Source of the DNA: an uncultured Bacilli bacterium | GTDB lineage: Bacteria; Bacillota_I; Bacilli_A; RF39; UBA660 | Reading direction: 5' to 3' | DNA: 32,304 nt | Assembly: GCA_944350285.1 (NCBI GenBank) | Contig: CALVOL010000007.1 | Span: 1 to 32,304, forward strand | In this document: positions 1 to 21,272 of the stretch, piece after piece | Layout: each line of letters begins with the position of its first letter | How positions within the stretch are numbered: position 1 is the stretch's first letter | Program-made: the position numbers and the translations under genes | Notes under the pieces: generated by a model | Database searches by the model: none | Seen by the model: only the letters and a program-made list of their open reading frames with translations | Told to the model about the DNA's origin: nothing

Positions 1-312
1 GTTAGCAGGTGTAACAGGAATCATATTATTAAAGTTTATTGCCCCTAACTCTCCATGATCAATCTTCATAAAATCAATGGTATCATTCATCCTTCTATGT
101 TTTGTTTTTGGGCTAGATAAAGGCGCAAAATAGTCAATATCATGAACTCGAAACAAAATACCAATAAAAGGTCGAAGTTTCTTTGCATCAGCATTATAAG
201 GAACTCTACTATCAAAAGTTCTTAGAAAATTACAATACTGCGAATTAATCGTTACAAATTTAATTTTAGTATATTGTGTGAACTGTAACAAAATATTCAC
301 CTGCCTTTTCAT
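1..312 (-). CDS. toxN: ToxN/AbiQ-family type III toxin endoribonuclease (5' part, runs off the window)
   Basis: About 104 codons of the N-terminal part are visible; the rest lies left of base 1. The translation contains KFVTINSQYCNFLRTFDSRV, then RPFIGILF, then YFAPLSSPKTKH and a segment ending INFNNMIPV. This is the order seen in ToxN/AbiQ proteins (strand, RPFIGI, APLSSPK, then a segment ending in NxxxMIPV). Family members are ribonucleases that cut their own antitoxin precursor into repeat units and are held inactive by those RNAs; several abort phage infection. The ATG at 312 has no Shine-Dalgarno site. A TTG at 291 follows AGGTGA at 6 nt and may be the real start. Upstream on the same strand are a terminator and three 37-nt repeats, the expected toxI-terminator-toxN layout. 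The family call is firm; activity cannot be judged from a truncated gene. Confidence 0.85.
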   Translation of the reverse strand, partial: MKRQVNILLQFTQYTKIKFVTINSQYCNFLRTFDSRVPYNADAKKLRPFIGILFRVHDIDYFAPLSSPKTKHRRMNDTIDFMKIDHGELGAINFNNMIPVTPAN

Positions 313-584: not shown

Positions 585-704
585 CTATTTTATATAATGA
601 GAATCTCTTTCCATTTCTTCATCAGCTCTTTTAGCAAGCTTTAAAGCGGAAAAAGTAAATACTAAAAAGAAACTTAGTAAAATCATTCCGATAACAAAAA
701 ACAT
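585..704 (-). CDS. Small single-pass membrane protein, 39 aa, unknown function
   Basis: An ATG at 704 follows a strong Shine-Dalgarno site, AAGGGGG, 9 nt upstream, and opens a 39-codon frame ending in TAG. The peptide starts MFFVIGMILLSFFLVF. Residues 1 to about 20 are hydrophobic and the rest is charged (KLAKRADEEMERDSHYIK), so one N-terminal membrane helix with a cytoplasmic charged tail is likely. The quality of the ribosome-binding site and the clear helix-plus-tail pattern support a real gene. I do not recognise the family. It lies upstream of toxIN on the same strand but has its own candidate promoter and stops 13 nt before the toxIN -35 box. It could be a core small membrane protein or a small toxin-like peptide; the sequence does not decide. 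Confidence 0.6.
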   Translation of the reverse strand: MFFVIGMILLSFFLVFTFSALKLAKRADEEMERDSHYIK

Positions 705-758: not shown

Positions 759-805
759 CAAATTCGACAAAATAAGATAAAATTTTCTTAAACATAAATG
801 TTCAT

Positions 806-865
806 TTTACATTTTGGCTCATTTTCACTTTACAAAATGGCTGAGTTTCATTTTACATTTTGGCT
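806..865. repeat. 23-bp tandem repeat, resembles an IS21-type element end
   Basis: TTTACATTTTGGCT at 806-819, TTTACAAAATGGCT at 829-842 and TTTACATTTTGGCT at 852-865 are spaced exactly 23 bp apart. The intervening bases are also similar (CATTTTCAC, GAGTTTCAT). IS21-family elements carry multiple short direct repeats of this kind at each end, and units of the TTTACAAAATGGCTCA type are, from memory, common at such ends in Bacillota. No transposase genes (istA/istB) are present in the window, so at most this is a solitary end. It sits directly downstream of the histidine phosphatase gene. A protein-binding iteron array is the alternative. Confidence 0.45.
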
Positions 866-879
866 ATATATTACATACT

Positions 880-1500
880 TTAATCGCTCTTACCATACAC
901 AACATGTTCTAAATCGATAATATTATCTTGTTCTATTTCTAATTTATAAATATCCGGAGATGCCCACTTTAAAGTAATATTTAAATCACGATAACAAAGA
1001 GTTAATTGATCCTCTATATATCTTATTTCACAAAAATTCATCAGTAAAATAAACAATGCAAAATGATGTGAAAAAATAGCTATGGTTTTATTTTGATTAG
1101 ATTCGCAAATTTCATGAAACACTTCTGTCATTCTTTTTTGAACATCATAGAATGATTCTCCATCTTCTAATTTAAAATCAAAGTCATGTTCTCTTAAATA
1201 ATTAAAAGTTTTATTATCCATCGTTTTCTTACCAGTCTTTATCTCTTCTAATCTAGAGTCCAAATAAATATCTAAATTTAATTTTGCTGCCAAATACTTA
1301 GCAGTAGCTACACTCCTTGCATATGGAGAAGAATATATCTTTTCGACTTTAGATAATTCTGGAATATCTGATAATTCTTTTGCGAGTCTCTCCCCTTCAA
1401 CAGTTAATGTCATAGCTTTAGTATCCAATTCAAAATCATTATTTTGAATAATACCTTTCTTTAATTTTTCAGAATGTCTAATTAAATATATTGTTGTCAT
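880..1500 (-). CDS. Histidine phosphatase superfamily protein
   Basis: The 206-aa protein begins MTTIYLIRHSEK, with the RHxE-type catalytic motif (nucleophile His9 in RHS). It continues with YSSPYARSVATA, the SSPxxRxxxTA segment that binds phosphate, and FSHHFALF with the second histidine. This is the phosphoglycerate-mutase-like histidine phosphatase fold; the substrate cannot be inferred. The ATG at 1500 is preferred over one at 1518 because AAGGTGG sits 5 nt upstream and the upstream ATG has no ribosome-binding site. It follows the TOPRIM gene by 30 bp on the same strand, so it is likely the third gene of the ATPase-TOPRIM operon. A phosphatase there is unexpected and may act on a nucleotide or phosphoprotein in the same system, or be a passenger. 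Confidence 0.8.
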   Translation of the reverse strand: MTTIYLIRHSEKLKKGIIQNNDFELDTKAMTLTVEGERLAKELSDIPELSKVEKIYSSPYARSVATAKYLAAKLNLDIYLDSRLEEIKTGKKTMDNKTFNYLREHDFDFKLEDGESFYDVQKRMTEVFHEICESNQNKTIAIFSHHFALFILLMNFCEIRYIEDQLTLCYRDLNITLKWASPDIYKLEIEQDNIIDLEHVVYGKSD

Positions 1501-1530
1501 ATTCCACCTTAACCTCATCTATATAAAATA

Positions 1531-2346
1531 CTAGTTATTCACATTGTCACTATCTTTCCTATAAATAATTCCTAAATCTATTAGCATGATACTAATTAAA
1601 GATAAAGCCCTAAATCTCTTACTATATTTATAATTATCTTCTTCCTCACGAAAAATAATACAATTTTCTCTTTTAAAATTCGATGGATCGTAAGAAGTAA
1701 TACCAAAGAGTTTCATTGTTCTATGCATGTTTTCGGCTGCTAATATTAATGAGTTTTCATCAATGTCTCTTATATTCTTTTTTATCCGATGAAAAAATTC
1801 TGCTTTAGCTTTTTTCGCATCATTGCTTTGATAAAAACTTCCTCTCCATAATTGCTTTTGAAAATTGGAAAGTTCATAGACTTCAACACAAGGATAACTT
1901 AAAAGAAGTAACCCGTTCATCTCGTATTCATTATCCATCGCACTGGCAAAAGATTCCAATGCTTTTTTTACCACTTTTTGTTCATTGGATTTATTGTCTC
2001 TATCCCATAAAATATAAATAGGGATATTTTTTAAACTTCTTCCTAATCGAGGACTTAAAAGATTATATATATTATCATAATAGTTTTCACCCTCAAATAT
2101 AGATTTTATACTTGAATTCGCTGTATTAACAACAATAACTTTAGAATTCATATTACTTTTACTAATAAAGACATCTTGACTCTTTTTTCCTCTACGAATT
2201 GACACATAATTATAGTCTAAAATATTTGTAAAAATATGCTTTAGCAACCGAAATTCTTCATCTTCCCCTTCAACAATTATAATAACTTCACCAATAGATT
2301 GATCTTTATTTATCTGTAATTTCCTTGTTATATCTTGGCATTCCAT
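1531..2346 (-). CDS. TOPRIM-like (RloB-like) partner of an AAA ATPase
   Basis: A 271-aa protein. Counting from an upstream ATG at 2358, VIIIVEGEDEEF at about 25-36 supplies the acidic EGE, ILWDRDNK at about 116-123 supplies the DxD, and LLSYPCVEVYEL follows at about 152-163. That order (EGE, DRD, PCxE) matches RloB/AbiLii-type TOPRIM-fold proteins, which are predicted metal-dependent nucleases paired with AAA ATPases in restriction-linked and abortive-infection loci. The ATG at 2346 has GGAG 6 nt upstream; the ATG at 2358 has nothing. Either way the start lies inside the ATPase gene (41-bp overlap from 2346), showing translational coupling. The C-terminal half from about residue 170 is lysine- and aromatic-rich and I do not recognise it. 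The TOPRIM assignment rests on motifs only. Confidence 0.65.
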   Translation of the reverse strand: MECQDITRKLQINKDQSIGEVIIIVEGEDEEFRLLKHIFTNILDYNYVSIRRGKKSQDVFISKSNMNSKVIVVNTANSSIKSIFEGENYYDNIYNLLSPRLGRSLKNIPIYILWDRDNKSNEQKVVKKALESFASAMDNEYEMNGLLLLSYPCVEVYELSNFQKQLWRGSFYQSNDAKKAKAEFFHRIKKNIRDIDENSLILAAENMHRTMKLFGITSYDPSNFKRENCIIFREEEDNYKYSKRFRALSLISIMLIDLGIIYRKDSDNVNN

Positions 2347-3472
2347 CAAAAACTCCATTTAAATACATTTTTTCAATATTTTGTGATTCCCGAGGATTTT
2401 CTAAAGATGCTCTTTTGATTATAGTCCCTCTTTTTGGATCAAATCGAAAAGTATAAATTTGATCAGGTCTTAGTAAAGATGTGTCTAATAAATTTGTAGA
2501 ATGAGAAGTGAAAAATAACTGAGAATTTTTACTATTATTGAAAAAATATTTTATTAATGCTTCCTCTAATTCATTATGTAATCCACTAGAAAACTCATCA
2601 ACAATAAGCATACAATTATTTTTCGTAGTAAATAAAATCGGTAATAATGTATTCATAAAGACTCTATTTCCAGTCGATTCTAAAGCAAGTGGAAAAGCGA
2701 AATTTGTTCCATTCTTTTTTAAACAAATAGTTTCTTTATCTGCTGCAATCTTCATGGTTTGATCAGGATTTGTCAGCTGTTTATTAAACACCACTTCGCT
2801 ATTATAACCGAGTTCCTTCATGAATTTATTTAAAGCAGTGGCATCGCTATTTTCGGCATATTTATCAATAATTTGTTCTGCGGCTTTTAAAGAATTATAT
2901 GATTTGGTAAGACGTCCACCAAGAAGACAATTAATATACATTGAATTCTTTAAAAAATCAAACCACTGATTTAAAATTGGATGATTATTAAATCTCGTAT
3001 TAAAATAAATAAATTTAACAATAGATAACTGAAGATTAATATCAATATTTGTATTTTCTTCTGTTAAATAATTCTTTCCTTTAGATTGTAATCTTTCTAA
3101 AACTAATTTTTGATTCAAATATAATTTTTCTTGATTAAAAGCATTTCCATCAAACTCAACATCATATTTTAATATATTATTATCAATCTCAAATTCATAA
3201 GATAAATTATACCTTGTTCCATTTGTATACATTGACTTTTTCATGATAAAATTAGGCTCTGAATTATCTAATAAAAAATCTAATAATAATACTATAGCTT
3301 GTAGGGCTTGTGTTTTACCGGAAGCATTCTCACCAATAAATAATGCTCCTTTCAAAATACGATCTTTATTCACATTTGTATCATTTAGTATTTTAGAATT
3401 GGTAGCTTTAAAATCAAAAATTGTTTCTTCCATAAACGTTGTATAATTTTTTAAAACAATTTTTGTTAACAT
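2306..3472 (-). CDS. AAA/ABC-type ATPase, RloA/AbiLi-like, putative defence protein
   Basis: A 388-aa ATPase of the SMC/ABC-like AAA_15/AAA_21 group. The N-terminus MLTKIVLKNYTTF is the usual first strand of this group. Walker A is GENASGKT (47-54). A signature-like LESTGNRVF follows in the second half, then Walker B LIVDEF (289-294), D-loop SGLH and the switch histidine in FFTSHST (H324). Between the Walker motifs is the variable insert typical of RloA, AbiL and OLD-like proteins. Such ATPases work with a nuclease partner, and here the partner gene overlaps the 3' end. The start has AGGAAGGTG 5-6 nt upstream. The gene is cut off from the polysaccharide operon by a terminator at 3509-3543. 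A role in phage defence is inferred from family and context; the ATPase fold is certain. Confidence 0.82.
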   Translation of the reverse strand: MLTKIVLKNYTTFMEETIFDFKATNSKILNDTNVNKDRILKGALFIGENASGKTQALQAIVLLLDFLLDNSEPNFIMKKSMYTNGTRYNLSYEFEIDNNILKYDVEFDGNAFNQEKLYLNQKLVLERLQSKGKNYLTEENTNIDINLQLSIVKFIYFNTRFNNHPILNQWFDFLKNSMYINCLLGGRLTKSYNSLKAAEQIIDKYAENSDATALNKFMKELGYNSEVVFNKQLTNPDQTMKIAADKETICLKKNGTNFAFPLALESTGNRVFMNTLLPILFTTKNNCMLIVDEFSSGLHNELEEALIKYFFNNSKNSQLFFTSHSTNLLDTSLLRPDQIYTFRFDPKRGTIIKRASLENPRESQNIEKMYLNGVFDGMPRYNKEITDK

Positions 3473-3508: not shown

Positions 3509-3543
3509 AAAAAAAAATTACAGTTTAAATATTTAAACTGTAA
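3509..3543 (-). terminator. Terminator of the exopolysaccharide operon
   Basis: A perfect 26-nt palindrome (3518-3543; half-site TTACAGTTTAAAT) is followed on the minus strand by nine T residues (A-run 3509-3517). It lies 78 bp after the last exopolysaccharide gene and 37 bp before the ATPase start, separating the two units. The stem is AT-rich but long. Confidence 0.75.
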
Positions 3544-3620
3544 AAATTTTACGTTTATTATACATAATTATAATAAAATGTCAAATATTATATTTATTCT
3601 TTTGATTTCTTAAAAGAAAA

Positions 3621-7445: not shown

Positions 7446-8582
7446 CTATTCATTCCCAAAAATGTTAACTCCTTTAGTCAAATAGCTTTGATAATTCTTT
7501 AAAGCATAATCACCTGAGTCATAAGTATAAATATATCTATAAAAACCAACAAAACAAAGTAAAAATATTAAAGAATTATAGAAAAATCTATTATTTCTTC
7601 CAAAAATCGTACTAATATAATATATCACGAATGGGAAAAATATAGAAAAATAATCTCTAAATCTTGTAATAATTTCAAAACTTCTTAATAAAGAAACCAT
7701 AGGAATAATCAGCAAATACAAATTAATAATCATCTTTCTCTCATGAGAAGCATTTTTATAAACCTTATTATAAAATATTATAATGAGTAACCACACACCA
7801 AAAGTTTCAATAGAACTTAAAATATTCAATGCTGAGCTATTTCCTATCAAATACGCTTCTGTTTTACTCATAATCTTAGCACTATTACCAAAAATACTTA
7901 CAATCAAATCTGTTGGATTAAAAGCAAAGATACCCATTAAATTTAAAACAAGAAAAGCTAAAAATATTAATCCGCATATAATTAAACCTTTCTTACTAAA
8001 GTTTAATTTTCTTATAAAAATCAACGGTATTAAAACAACACTACTGATATGCAAAAAGATACATGGTATAATACATAATAGATACTTCTTTGTATTCCCC
8101 TTAATCAAAAAGTAAACAGCATTTAAAAATATAACTAAAACTAAAGATTGTCTCATACTAACAAATGTATTAAAAATACAACATTTATACAAAAAGATAA
8201 TTATAAAATAAGAAAAATCAATATCAAATCTTTTTAATGCCTTATATAACAAAGTATAAAATAAAATAGAATGAATTAATGTGAAACCATAAAAATTAAA
8301 GCCAAATGATTTTACTATAGAATTTAACAAGATATAACCAATCTCGGTATCATACTGATTTGTAACACTAAAAGAAAATTCAGATAAAGGAGGTGCAGCT
8401 TTAAAAATATTTTCATAAATATTATAATCCCAGCCACCTAATCGATATCTTGTTCCAGAAAGCAAAATTAGTACAATTAATGTGATAATCTCAATTGCCT
8501 TTTTTGCACTATTACTTTTAGCCCCTTTATGCAAAATATAAAAAACTAAACATAGTATAAAAACCGAAACATAATATAACAT
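7446..8582 (-). CDS. EpsG-family (Wzy-like) polysaccharide polymerase
   Basis: A 378-aa membrane protein with about 9-11 helices. The GTRYRLGGWDYNIYENIF segment near residue 43 matches the conserved GxRYxxGxDxxxYxxxF signature of EpsG proteins, and SMRQSLVLVIFLNAVYFLI follows in the middle, also typical. EpsG proteins are the presumed polymerases that join flipped repeat units outside the membrane. The gene lies between the pyruvyl transferase and the ATP-grasp gene, with gaps of 21 and 3 bp. No other polymerase candidate is present in the operon. Confidence 0.82.
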   Translation of the reverse strand: MLYYVSVFILCLVFYILHKGAKSNSAKKAIEIITLIVLILLSGTRYRLGGWDYNIYENIFKAAPPLSEFSFSVTNQYDTEIGYILLNSIVKSFGFNFYGFTLIHSILFYTLLYKALKRFDIDFSYFIIIFLYKCCIFNTFVSMRQSLVLVIFLNAVYFLIKGNTKKYLLCIIPCIFLHISSVVLIPLIFIRKLNFSKKGLIICGLIFLAFLVLNLMGIFAFNPTDLIVSIFGNSAKIMSKTEAYLIGNSSALNILSSIETFGVWLLIIIFYNKVYKNASHERKMIINLYLLIIPMVSLLRSFEIITRFRDYFSIFFPFVIYYISTIFGRNNRFFYNSLIFLLCFVGFYRYIYTYDSGDYALKNYQSYLTKGVNIFGNE

Positions 8583-15625: not shown

Positions 15626-16366
15626 CTAATCAACATCACTATCATACAAAATATAATCAAAATTTTCAACAAATAATTTATGAACTATTCTTTTATCTTT
15701 TACAATTTTCGTTACTTTTTTATATGCTTTTTTTAAATCATAGGGCTCAGCATGATGGGTATCGCTTGCCAAAAAGGTAATCATTCCTTTTTGCAGTAAT
15801 TTTTTTAATCTTTTCTCGGCCCCTTTTGTATACTTGCCAAGGAGACTCTTGTAATTTCCTTGTAATAATACTCCCATATCTCTTAAATCTTCAAAAAATG
15901 TAGAATCTTCACTGATATAATGATACCTTTCTGGATGAGCGAGTATAGGGATATACTCATGATTAATTAATTCAAAGAAGATATTTTTTACATTTAATAG
16001 TTCATTGTTCATGGGAAGCTCTACTAAAACATAACGAGAATGATTTAACGTCATACATTCCCCATTCTCTAGCAGTTCTAAAATATTGTCACATAGTAAA
16101 ATTTCGTTTCCTAAATATAAATGAATAGGCAACTTTCTTGTTTCAACGAGTTCTTGTAATACTTCAAAACGAATTTTCTTTTCTTTGTTATTACAAGCAT
16201 ATTTGCTTCCATAAATATAATGGGGTGTCAAAATAATATCTGACACCCCTTCTTCTACTGCAAGTTTTAAAATTTCAATGCTTTCTCTAGCTGAACTACT
16301 ACCATCATCAATGCCAGAAAGTATATGACAGTGGATATCTTTTAAATTACTGTTCATAGTACTCAT
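15626..16366 (-). CDS. cpsB: CpsB/CapC-family (PHP) tyrosine-protein phosphatase
   Basis: A 246-aa PHP-fold phosphatase. DIHCHILSGIDDGS holds the first metal-binding histidines; TPHYIYG, LAHPERYHYI and LASDTHH complete the manganese-type site. The family dephosphorylates the tyrosine cluster of its cognate BY-kinase, here encoded just upstream, and so controls polymer length and export. It overlaps the kinase gene by 20 bp. An AAAGGA lies 10 nt before the ATG at 16366; an ATG at 16357 is the alternative. Confidence 0.9.
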   Translation of the reverse strand: MSTMNSNLKDIHCHILSGIDDGSSSARESIEILKLAVEEGVSDIILTPHYIYGSKYACNNKEKKIRFEVLQELVETRKLPIHLYLGNEILLCDNILELLENGECMTLNHSRYVLVELPMNNELLNVKNIFFELINHEYIPILAHPERYHYISEDSTFFEDLRDMGVLLQGNYKSLLGKYTKGAEKRLKKLLQKGMITFLASDTHHAEPYDLKKAYKKVTKIVKDKRIVHKLFVENFDYILYDSDVD

Positions 16367-20322: not shown

Positions 20323-20347
20323 GAAAAAAACAAGTTATTTCTAACCT
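20323..20347 (-). terminator. Terminator after the 183-aa gene
   Basis: On the minus strand AGGTTA pairs with TAACTT (one G-U) around GAAA (20332-20347), followed by G and seven T residues (20324-20330). The tetraloop and T-run are good; the stem is short. Confidence 0.5.
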
Positions 20348-20371
20348 GTTAAATGAATAATATTTAACTTT

Positions 20372-20923
20372 TTAAAGTCTCGGCCCATTTTTTTCTAACT
20401 CATCCGTAAATTTATATGTATCTTCAAAATCTCTTTGAGAAATCCCATACATATCATTAGCATTAGTAATATTAATAAATCCACCAGCAGCAATTCGCAT
20501 GTCAGAACCCCATTGATTCAAAATAATATTATCTGGAATTTGTACAAATATTTGAGGACCTCCAGTAGGGCGAAATAAGCCTTGGTTTTCAGGATCTAGT
20601 TCATATTTCCTTTTAAAAGTAGAATCATCAATAATCCACTGATTAGCATGATTGTTAATATCCACTATGACATTCCCTTGCTCATCTACTTTAGTAGCAA
20701 CCCATCCTGGTTGTCCTGTTTGACTATCTAAGGCTACTTGAGCTACTTTTTCCTGAACTTCATTTCCTTGAGCATCGACACTCCAAGAAATTACATTCTC
20801 TCCTACATTTCCCTGTCTTGCAACAATACGTGCAAATTTTTCTGCTTGTCGTGGTATCATAGAACCACTTTCTATACCTTGTTTCACATAGCTAGCTACA
20901 TCAACTTTTACGTATTCTCCCAT
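20372..20923 (-). CDS. Conserved hypothetical protein, PGDYG-like
   Basis: A 183-aa soluble protein with no signal peptide or membrane helix. It begins MGEYVKVDVASYVKQGI and contains SMIPRQAEKFARIV, then NQWIIDDSTFKRKYE, FRPTGGPQIFVQIPDN and AAGGFINITNANDMYGIS. The pattern of a WIIxxxxFxKKYE segment and a GGxxxxxxIxxN(D) ending recalls small beta-rich PGDYG-type proteins of unknown function, but this is a weak resemblance. AAAGGA lies upstream at the rather long spacing of about 13 nt. It follows trxA after 52 bp and is closed by a terminator, so it may be the last gene of the cvpA-trxA unit or have its own promoter (a TATAAT lies at 20947-20952 without a clear -35). Confidence 0.65.
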   Translation of the reverse strand: MGEYVKVDVASYVKQGIESGSMIPRQAEKFARIVARQGNVGENVISWSVDAQGNEVQEKVAQVALDSQTGQPGWVATKVDEQGNVIVDINNHANQWIIDDSTFKRKYELDPENQGLFRPTGGPQIFVQIPDNIILNQWGSDMRIAAGGFINITNANDMYGISQRDFEDTYKFTDELEKNGPRL

Positions 20924-20975
20924 AAATAAATTTATTTCCTTTCAAATTATAAAATTTTTTTGCAAATTTCTTTTC

Positions 20976-21272
20976 TCATTTCAAAGAATTTATCCATCTT
21001 TCTAATTCTTCTTTATTCATGAAACCAACAGTTTTGCCGACTTGTTTTCCATCTTTAAATAGAATTAATGTCGGGATAGACATAATGCCAAAGGATACTG
21101 CAAGATCTGTATGTTCTTCTGTGTTGATTTTTAAAACATCTACTCCTTCTAATTCTTCTAATATTGGAGCTAGAGCCTTACATGGGCCACACCAATCCGC
21201 ATAGAAATCTACTAAAACTAACCCTTTTTTGATTTCTTCTTCAAAATTTTCTTCTTTTAAATGTTTTATCAT
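20976..21272 (-). CDS. trxA: Thioredoxin
   Basis: A 98-aa thioredoxin with the redox motif WCGPC (27-31) after VLVDFYADWCGPC, the cis-proline segment MSIPTLILFKDG, and the usual length. It is cytoplasmic (no signal) and reduces protein disulfides using thioredoxin reductase. AAAGGAAT lies before the ATG and the gene follows cvpA by 17 bp. It ends in TGA exactly where thioredoxins end, which shows that TGA is a stop codon in this genome. Confidence 0.95.
   Translation of the reverse strand: MIKHLKEENFEEEIKKGLVLVDFYADWCGPCKALAPILEELEGVDVLKINTEEHTDLAVSFGIMSIPTLILFKDGKQVGKTVGFMNKEELERWINSLK

What the first reader, a model, noticed from the sequence alone, without database searches (positions are those of the whole stretch)
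880..3472. Three-gene ATPase + TOPRIM-like nuclease + histidine phosphatase operon, candidate defence system
Seen: the ATPase gene overlaps the TOPRIM-like gene, and the phosphatase gene follows after 30 bp with its own good ribosome-binding site, all on one strand, isolated by a terminator upstream. Known: RloA/RloB-like, AbiL and OLD-like ATPase/TOPRIM pairs act in or near anti-phage loci. A histidine phosphatase as third member is not part of the versions I know. It might remove a phosphate from a nucleotide signal, a nucleic-acid end or a modified protein. Adjacency to toxIN strengthens a defence-islet reading.
Basis: partly seen in the sequence, partly recalled or inferred. Interest (0 to 1): 0.66.

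Follow-up and report, generated by a model that had tools for sequence, protein, structure and literature searches.

The report
AbiL-like defence pair beside unrelated phosphatase
This is a known kind of two-gene bacterial anti-phage module (an ATPase plus a nuclease-like partner, as in lactococcal AbiL), and the phosphatase gene next to it is a separate gene that almost never accompanies the pair, so the proposed new three-gene system is not supported.

Summary
The three genes are real and placed as described: minus strand, ATPase 2306-3472, RloB/TOPRIM-like 1531-2358 (53-nt overlap), histidine phosphatase 880-1500 after a 30-nt gap. The first two form a known kind of module: all 9 ATPases tested match PADLOC AbiLi (E 1e-48 here) and 8 of 10 partners match AbiLii, though weakly. 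In public genomes the pair keeps the same gene overlap (exactly 50 nt in 31 of 33 scored loci). The phosphatase is not part of the module: 39 loci encoding the TOPRIM-like gene, 35 with room for a downstream gene, hold no such phosphatase. Its own relatives stand alone in unrelated gene neighbourhoods. In one sister species at the same site, most of the ATPase and TOPRIM genes is deleted, leaving a 96-bp scar, while the phosphatase is intact. That scar and the high DNA identity show the three genes were neighbours in at least two genomes and probably moved together once, but not that they work together. Best reading: an AbiL-like abortive-infection pair (ATPase sensor/restrainer, TOPRIM nuclease effector) with a passenger phosphatase, in a variable site between a polysaccharide locus and toxIN/rpsB. 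The TOPRIM fold rests on motifs and profile matches; structure searches did not confirm it.

The parts
2306..3472 (-). AbiLi-like AAA/ABC-type ATPase, 388 aa (Walker A K53, Walker B D292/E293, H324)
   Evidence: PADLOC AbiLi E=1.1e-48, Pfam AAA_21 5.9e-17; invariant motifs in 9 homologues
1531..2358 (-). AbiLii/RloB-type TOPRIM-like protein, 275 aa (E30, D119-R-D121, E159)
   Evidence: PADLOC AbiLii 2.2e-4 and 8 of 10 members; Pfam RloB 0.0027, below cut-off; profile match to the RloB family, hhalign E=9.7e-7 over D119..E159; D119, R120, D121 invariant in 30 sequences and E30, E159 nearly so
2306..2358 (-). 53-nt overlap of ATPase 3' end and TOPRIM-like 5' end (translational coupling)
   Evidence: exactly 50 nt in 31 of 33 scored public loci, one of 53 and one of 143
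880..1500 (-). Histidine phosphatase (branch 1, PhoE-like), 206 aa; judged a passenger gene, not a member of the system
   Evidence: PF00300 7.3e-23; model pLDDT 89, best PDB matches all of the histidine phosphatase superfamily; absent next to all other pairs
3557..3584 (-). perfect sigma-70-like promoter TTGACA-16-TATAAT of the pair
   Evidence: 12 of 12; TTGAC/TATAAT pairs at about -110/-90 recur upstream of many homologous ATPases
3518..3543 (-). 26-nt perfect palindrome in the leader (operator, attenuator or terminator), not seen in homologues

Best explanation
The locus is an AbiL-like two-gene abortive-infection module. The ATPase (AbiLi-like) would assemble into a sensor complex that holds the RloB/TOPRIM-type partner (AbiLii-like) inactive; on infection a phage trigger would release or activate the partner, which would cut a host nucleic acid (by analogy with PARIS AriB, tRNA) and stop growth. 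The downstream histidine phosphatase is a separate small-molecule or broad-specificity phosphatase gene that happens to sit behind the pair, may be co-transcribed by position, and is not needed for the module. Shown here: gene content, family matches, conserved overlap of the pair, absence of the phosphatase elsewhere, and a natural deletion that leaves the phosphatase alone. Inferred by analogy: sensing, restraint and nuclease activity.
For: AbiLi match E=1e-48 in the window and in 9 of 9 homologues; AbiLii match in 8 of 10; RloB-profile similarity around D.D and the E of 'YPCxE'; pair with conserved 50-nt overlap. A distant plasmid pair (27% identity) is annotated ATP-binding protein + RloB domain protein. 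Phosphatase absent from 39 loci with the TOPRIM-like gene, 35 with room downstream, and from the pairs in relatives' genomes. Phosphatase relatives stand alone, the four nearest sequences forming one clade of the same genus. Sister genome G030 keeps the phosphatase intact (99% aa identity) after most of the ATPase and TOPRIM genes was deleted. Literature: AbiL is bicistronic abiLi/abiLii (PMC3985639), AbiLii is RloB/TOPRIM_OLD-related and AAA proteins are reported as antitoxins of such partners (PMC10440598); PARIS mechanism (PMC12409363).
Against: The AbiLii and RloB matches are weak (RloB 18.3 bits, under the 31.5 cut-off), and Foldseek of the predicted model gave no TOPRIM structure in PDB or BFVD. 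F. nucleatum AbiLi did not neutralise AbiLii in E. coli (PMC3985639), so the restraint step is not general. Phage defence is untested for this lineage.
Confidence: 0.8

Rival explanations
1. True three-gene system: the phosphatase is a recently recruited third component that, in this lineage only, resets or licenses the pair, for example by removing a phosphate from a nucleotide signal or nucleic-acid end.
For: Same strand, 30-nt spacing, good ribosome-binding site; catalytic residues kept; G030 carries a scar of the same three-gene arrangement, with the phosphatase block (96%) and pair remnant (94%) much more alike between the two species than nearby core DNA (72-82%), so the three genes probably moved together once.
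Against: 0 of 39 loci with the TOPRIM-like gene carry it; phosphatase relatives live alone; in G030 it persists after the pair is gone.
Confidence: 0.07
2. The phosphatase belongs to the adjacent surface-polysaccharide locus rather than to the defence pair.
For: It lies at the edge of a polysaccharide locus in both G000 and G030; capsule loci often hold phosphatases (own knowledge).
Against: Its closest other relatives (G013, G027) are not in polysaccharide loci; the sister genome G016 has a polysaccharide locus at the same site without it; the window locus already encodes what looks like a CpsB-type phosphatase (15626-16366, judged by eye).
Confidence: 0.08
3. The pair is not a defence module but an OLD-like ATPase/TOPRIM pair with a housekeeping DNA- or RNA-related role.
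For: ATPase/TOPRIM combinations also serve non-defence roles (archaeal Cran1, PMC12796447, abstract only).
Against: Patchy distribution (ATPase in 11 of 196 genomes searched), decayed copies, neighbouring restriction genes and integrases, best matches to defence families.
Confidence: 0.1

Closest known systems
AbiL (AbiLi/AbiLii) of Lactococcus lactis
   Same: Two-gene operon, ATPase plus RloB/TOPRIM-type partner; ATPase scores E=1e-48 against PADLOC AbiLi
   Different: AbiLii similarity is weak; a phosphatase gene follows here by chance of position; no phenotype known
PDC-M12 (PADLOC phage defence candidate)
   Same: ATPase matches PDC-M12A at 8.7e-34; one homologue of the partner matches PDC-M12B
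   Different: Candidate system only; AbiLi scores better
PARIS (AriA/AriB)
   Same: Separate ATPase and TOPRIM genes, likely sensor-effector logic
   Different: AriA match weaker (1e-18) and no AriB match
RloA/RloB pairs
   Same: Same order of genes; profile similarity around the DxD and PCxE motifs
   Different: Below the RloB curated cut-off; genuine RloB proteins of the class are separate sequences
PhoE-like / CobC-like histidine phosphatases
   Same: Phosphatase gene product: PF00300, fold and catalytic residues
   Different: Not assignable to any curated NCBIfam function (61 bits against cut-offs of 163 and 350 for the two best)

Membership tests
AbiL | AbiLi-type ATPase | tested here: met
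   PDLC02335 E=1.1e-48; 9 of 9 homologues match
AbiL | AbiLii-type (RloB/TOPRIM) partner | tested here: inconclusive
   PDLC02337 E=2e-4, 8 of 10 homologues; hhalign against RloB 91% over 54 columns
AbiL | Two-gene operon, ATPase first, tightly coupled | tested here: met
   53-nt overlap; 50 nt in 31 of 33 scored public loci
AbiL | Abortive infection of phage | not testable with these tools
   needs phage challenge
PARIS | AriB effector (TOPRIM tRNase) | tested here: not met
   no AriB model matched
OLD / Gabija GajA | ATPase and TOPRIM in one chain | tested here: not met
   two separate ORFs
RloB | Score above the Pfam curated cut-off | tested here: not met
   18.3 against 31.5 bits
TOPRIM fold | beta-alpha order with E after strand 1 and DxD after strand 3 | tested here: inconclusive
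   motifs and predicted order fit, Foldseek found no TOPRIM structure
Three-gene ATPase/TOPRIM/phosphatase system | Phosphatase kept next to the pair in other genomes | tested here: not met
   0 of 39 loci, 35 with room downstream; none in relatives' genomes
Histidine phosphatase branch 1 | RHG-type catalytic motif and fold | tested here: met
   PF00300 81.7 bits over cut-off 21.7; PDB fold matches to 1.7e-12

The most novel reading that the evidence does not exclude
In this lineage an AbiL-like pair has recruited a histidine phosphatase as a third, regulatory component, and the trio moves between species as a unit.
Probability: 0.07. Interest if true: 0.5.

Novelty: new member of a known kind. 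Interest (0 to 1): 0.18.

Why it matters
It adds a divergent, compact branch of AbiL-like ATPase/TOPRIM pairs, mainly from uncultured Bacilli, with a fixed gene overlap. It also shows how a neighbour-based guess of a new defence component can be tested: the pair travels without the phosphatase, and a natural deletion in a sister species leaves the phosphatase alone.

Tried and rejected
Foldseek of the TOPRIM-like model against PDB and BFVD gave only weak GTPase-like or unrelated matches, so it was not used as support. PDB sequence searches with the TOPRIM-like profiles found nothing convincing. Literature search for a histidine phosphatase with TOPRIM and anti-phage found no paper. Rfam found nothing in the window at gathering scores. 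The AT-rich repeats 801-865 were first suspected to be the end of an IS21-type element, but in 4 of the 7 other matches in the genus they lie just upstream of AAA_14/DUF4143-like genes, and a fifth such gene follows them in G148-type copies; the gene identities there were judged by similarity to the G030 gene, which Pfam calls AAA_14/DUF4143. Viral contigs hold no relative of the TOPRIM-like protein by direct search and two ATPase relatives; one has an intact TOPRIM-like partner, the other only a 73-aa piece, and neither has a phosphatase.

Full report
Observation. The ATPase (2306-3472) and the TOPRIM-like gene (1531-2358) overlap by 53 nt, and the phosphatase starts at ATG 1500, 30 nt after the TOPRIM-like stop, at the start codon its relatives use. 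A perfect sigma-70-like promoter lies at 3584-3557, and a 26-nt palindrome sits between it and the ATPase start. The 'terminator' is therefore in the pair's own leader. The palindrome was not seen upstream of 33 homologous loci.

What the pair is. The ATPase matches PADLOC AbiLi at 1.1e-48, PDC-M12A at 8.7e-34 and AriA at 1e-18; all 9 homologues tested match AbiLi. The second protein matches AbiLii weakly (2.2e-4; 8 of 10 homologues) and RloB below cut-off. Profile comparison with genuine RloB proteins from the same class gives 9.7e-7 over the segment from the DxD motif to the 'S-PC-E' motif. D119, R120 and D121 are invariant among 30 sequences, and E30 and E159 nearly so. The AlphaFold model (pTM 0.82, mean pLDDT 74) has a strand/helix order that fits TOPRIM, but Foldseek found no TOPRIM structure, so the fold is inferred, not shown.

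Is the phosphatase part of it? No, by distribution. In 196 genomes the ATPase is found in 11 including the window's own; the pairs and their surroundings show no neighbouring phosphatase. One ATPase (G001) ends at a contig end and one pair (G004) is split over two contigs, so those two are uninformative or partial. A scan of public genome contigs gave 40 loci; 39 have a TOPRIM-like ORF, 35 of them with at least 700 nt downstream, and none has a phosphatase by profile or, within 3 kb, by a convincing RH motif (the one motif match is a 517-aa protein that I judge by its length and sequence not to be a phosphatase). In contrast the ATPase/TOPRIM overlap is exactly 50 nt in 31 of the 33 loci where both genes scored, with one of 53 and one of 143.

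The phosphatase on its own. Its four nearest sequences (window, G030, G013, G027) form one well-supported clade of the same genus. In G013 and G027 it stands alone in unrelated neighbourhoods, and the 30-37% relatives in other genera do too. It is an intact branch 1 histidine phosphatase whose substrate cannot be assigned.

A natural deletion. In G030 the same site carries a 96-bp remnant (94% identical) of the ATPase end and TOPRIM start, followed directly by the phosphatase. The phosphatase block is 96% identical over 720 bp, with no mismatch in its first 578 bp, while the flanking toxI region is 87% and nearby core DNA is 72-82% identical. The block therefore moved between species recently, and the trio existed in the ancestor of the G030 copy, but the phosphatase remains where the pair is gone. 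In a third genome, G016, toxIN and rpsB are at the same place with a polysaccharide locus next to them and no trio. The site is a variable one.

Surroundings of the pair elsewhere include a restriction helicase subunit and a GmrSD enzyme (G061), phage integrases (G002, G009) and a resolvase (G179), which fits a mobile defence module.

Mechanism. By analogy with PARIS, in which an ATPase hexamer holds a TOPRIM tRNase until a phage protein binds (PMC12409363), and with the report of AAA proteins as antitoxins of TOPRIM_OLD partners (PMC10440598), the likely sequence is sensing by the ATPase, release of the nuclease and growth arrest. None of these steps was shown here. A caution from the literature: F. 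nucleatum AbiLi did not neutralise AbiLii in E. coli (PMC3985639).

Verdict. A new, divergent member of the AbiL-like ATPase/TOPRIM kind; the phosphatase is a passenger. Interest is low to modest.

Noticed in passing
window 1-312 (-) and 399-518: toxN, cut off by the contig end, behind 3.2 copies of a 37-nt ToxI-like repeat. In sister genome G030 (L049 about 8400-8507) the repeat region is shorter by one unit and toxN is not found before rpsB, so the antitoxin repeats appear orphaned.
   Followed up: partly
window 801-865: 23-nt AT-rich repeats that at several other places in the genus lie just upstream of AAA_14/DUF4143-like genes; here no such gene follows, while G030 has one at the same place (L049 6848-8110). 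Looks like the scar of a lost AAA_14 gene.
   Followed up: partly
window 585-704 (-): A 39-aa ORF with a hydrophobic start (MFFVIGMILLSFFLVF...) lies in a stretch conserved in G030 (87%) and G016 (about 94%).
   Followed up: no
L124 735-2189 (G030:C42): Extra ORFs, one DinD-like by eye, lie between two parts of what looks like the comEC gene in the sister genome.
   Followed up: no
window about 20342-20977: Stretch holding a 183-aa ORF (20372-20923) that is absent from the otherwise colinear G030 region.
   Followed up: no
L075, L108, L109, L110, L111: Several public copies of the pair have a broken or shortened TOPRIM-like gene, or none found beside the ATPase.
   Followed up: no
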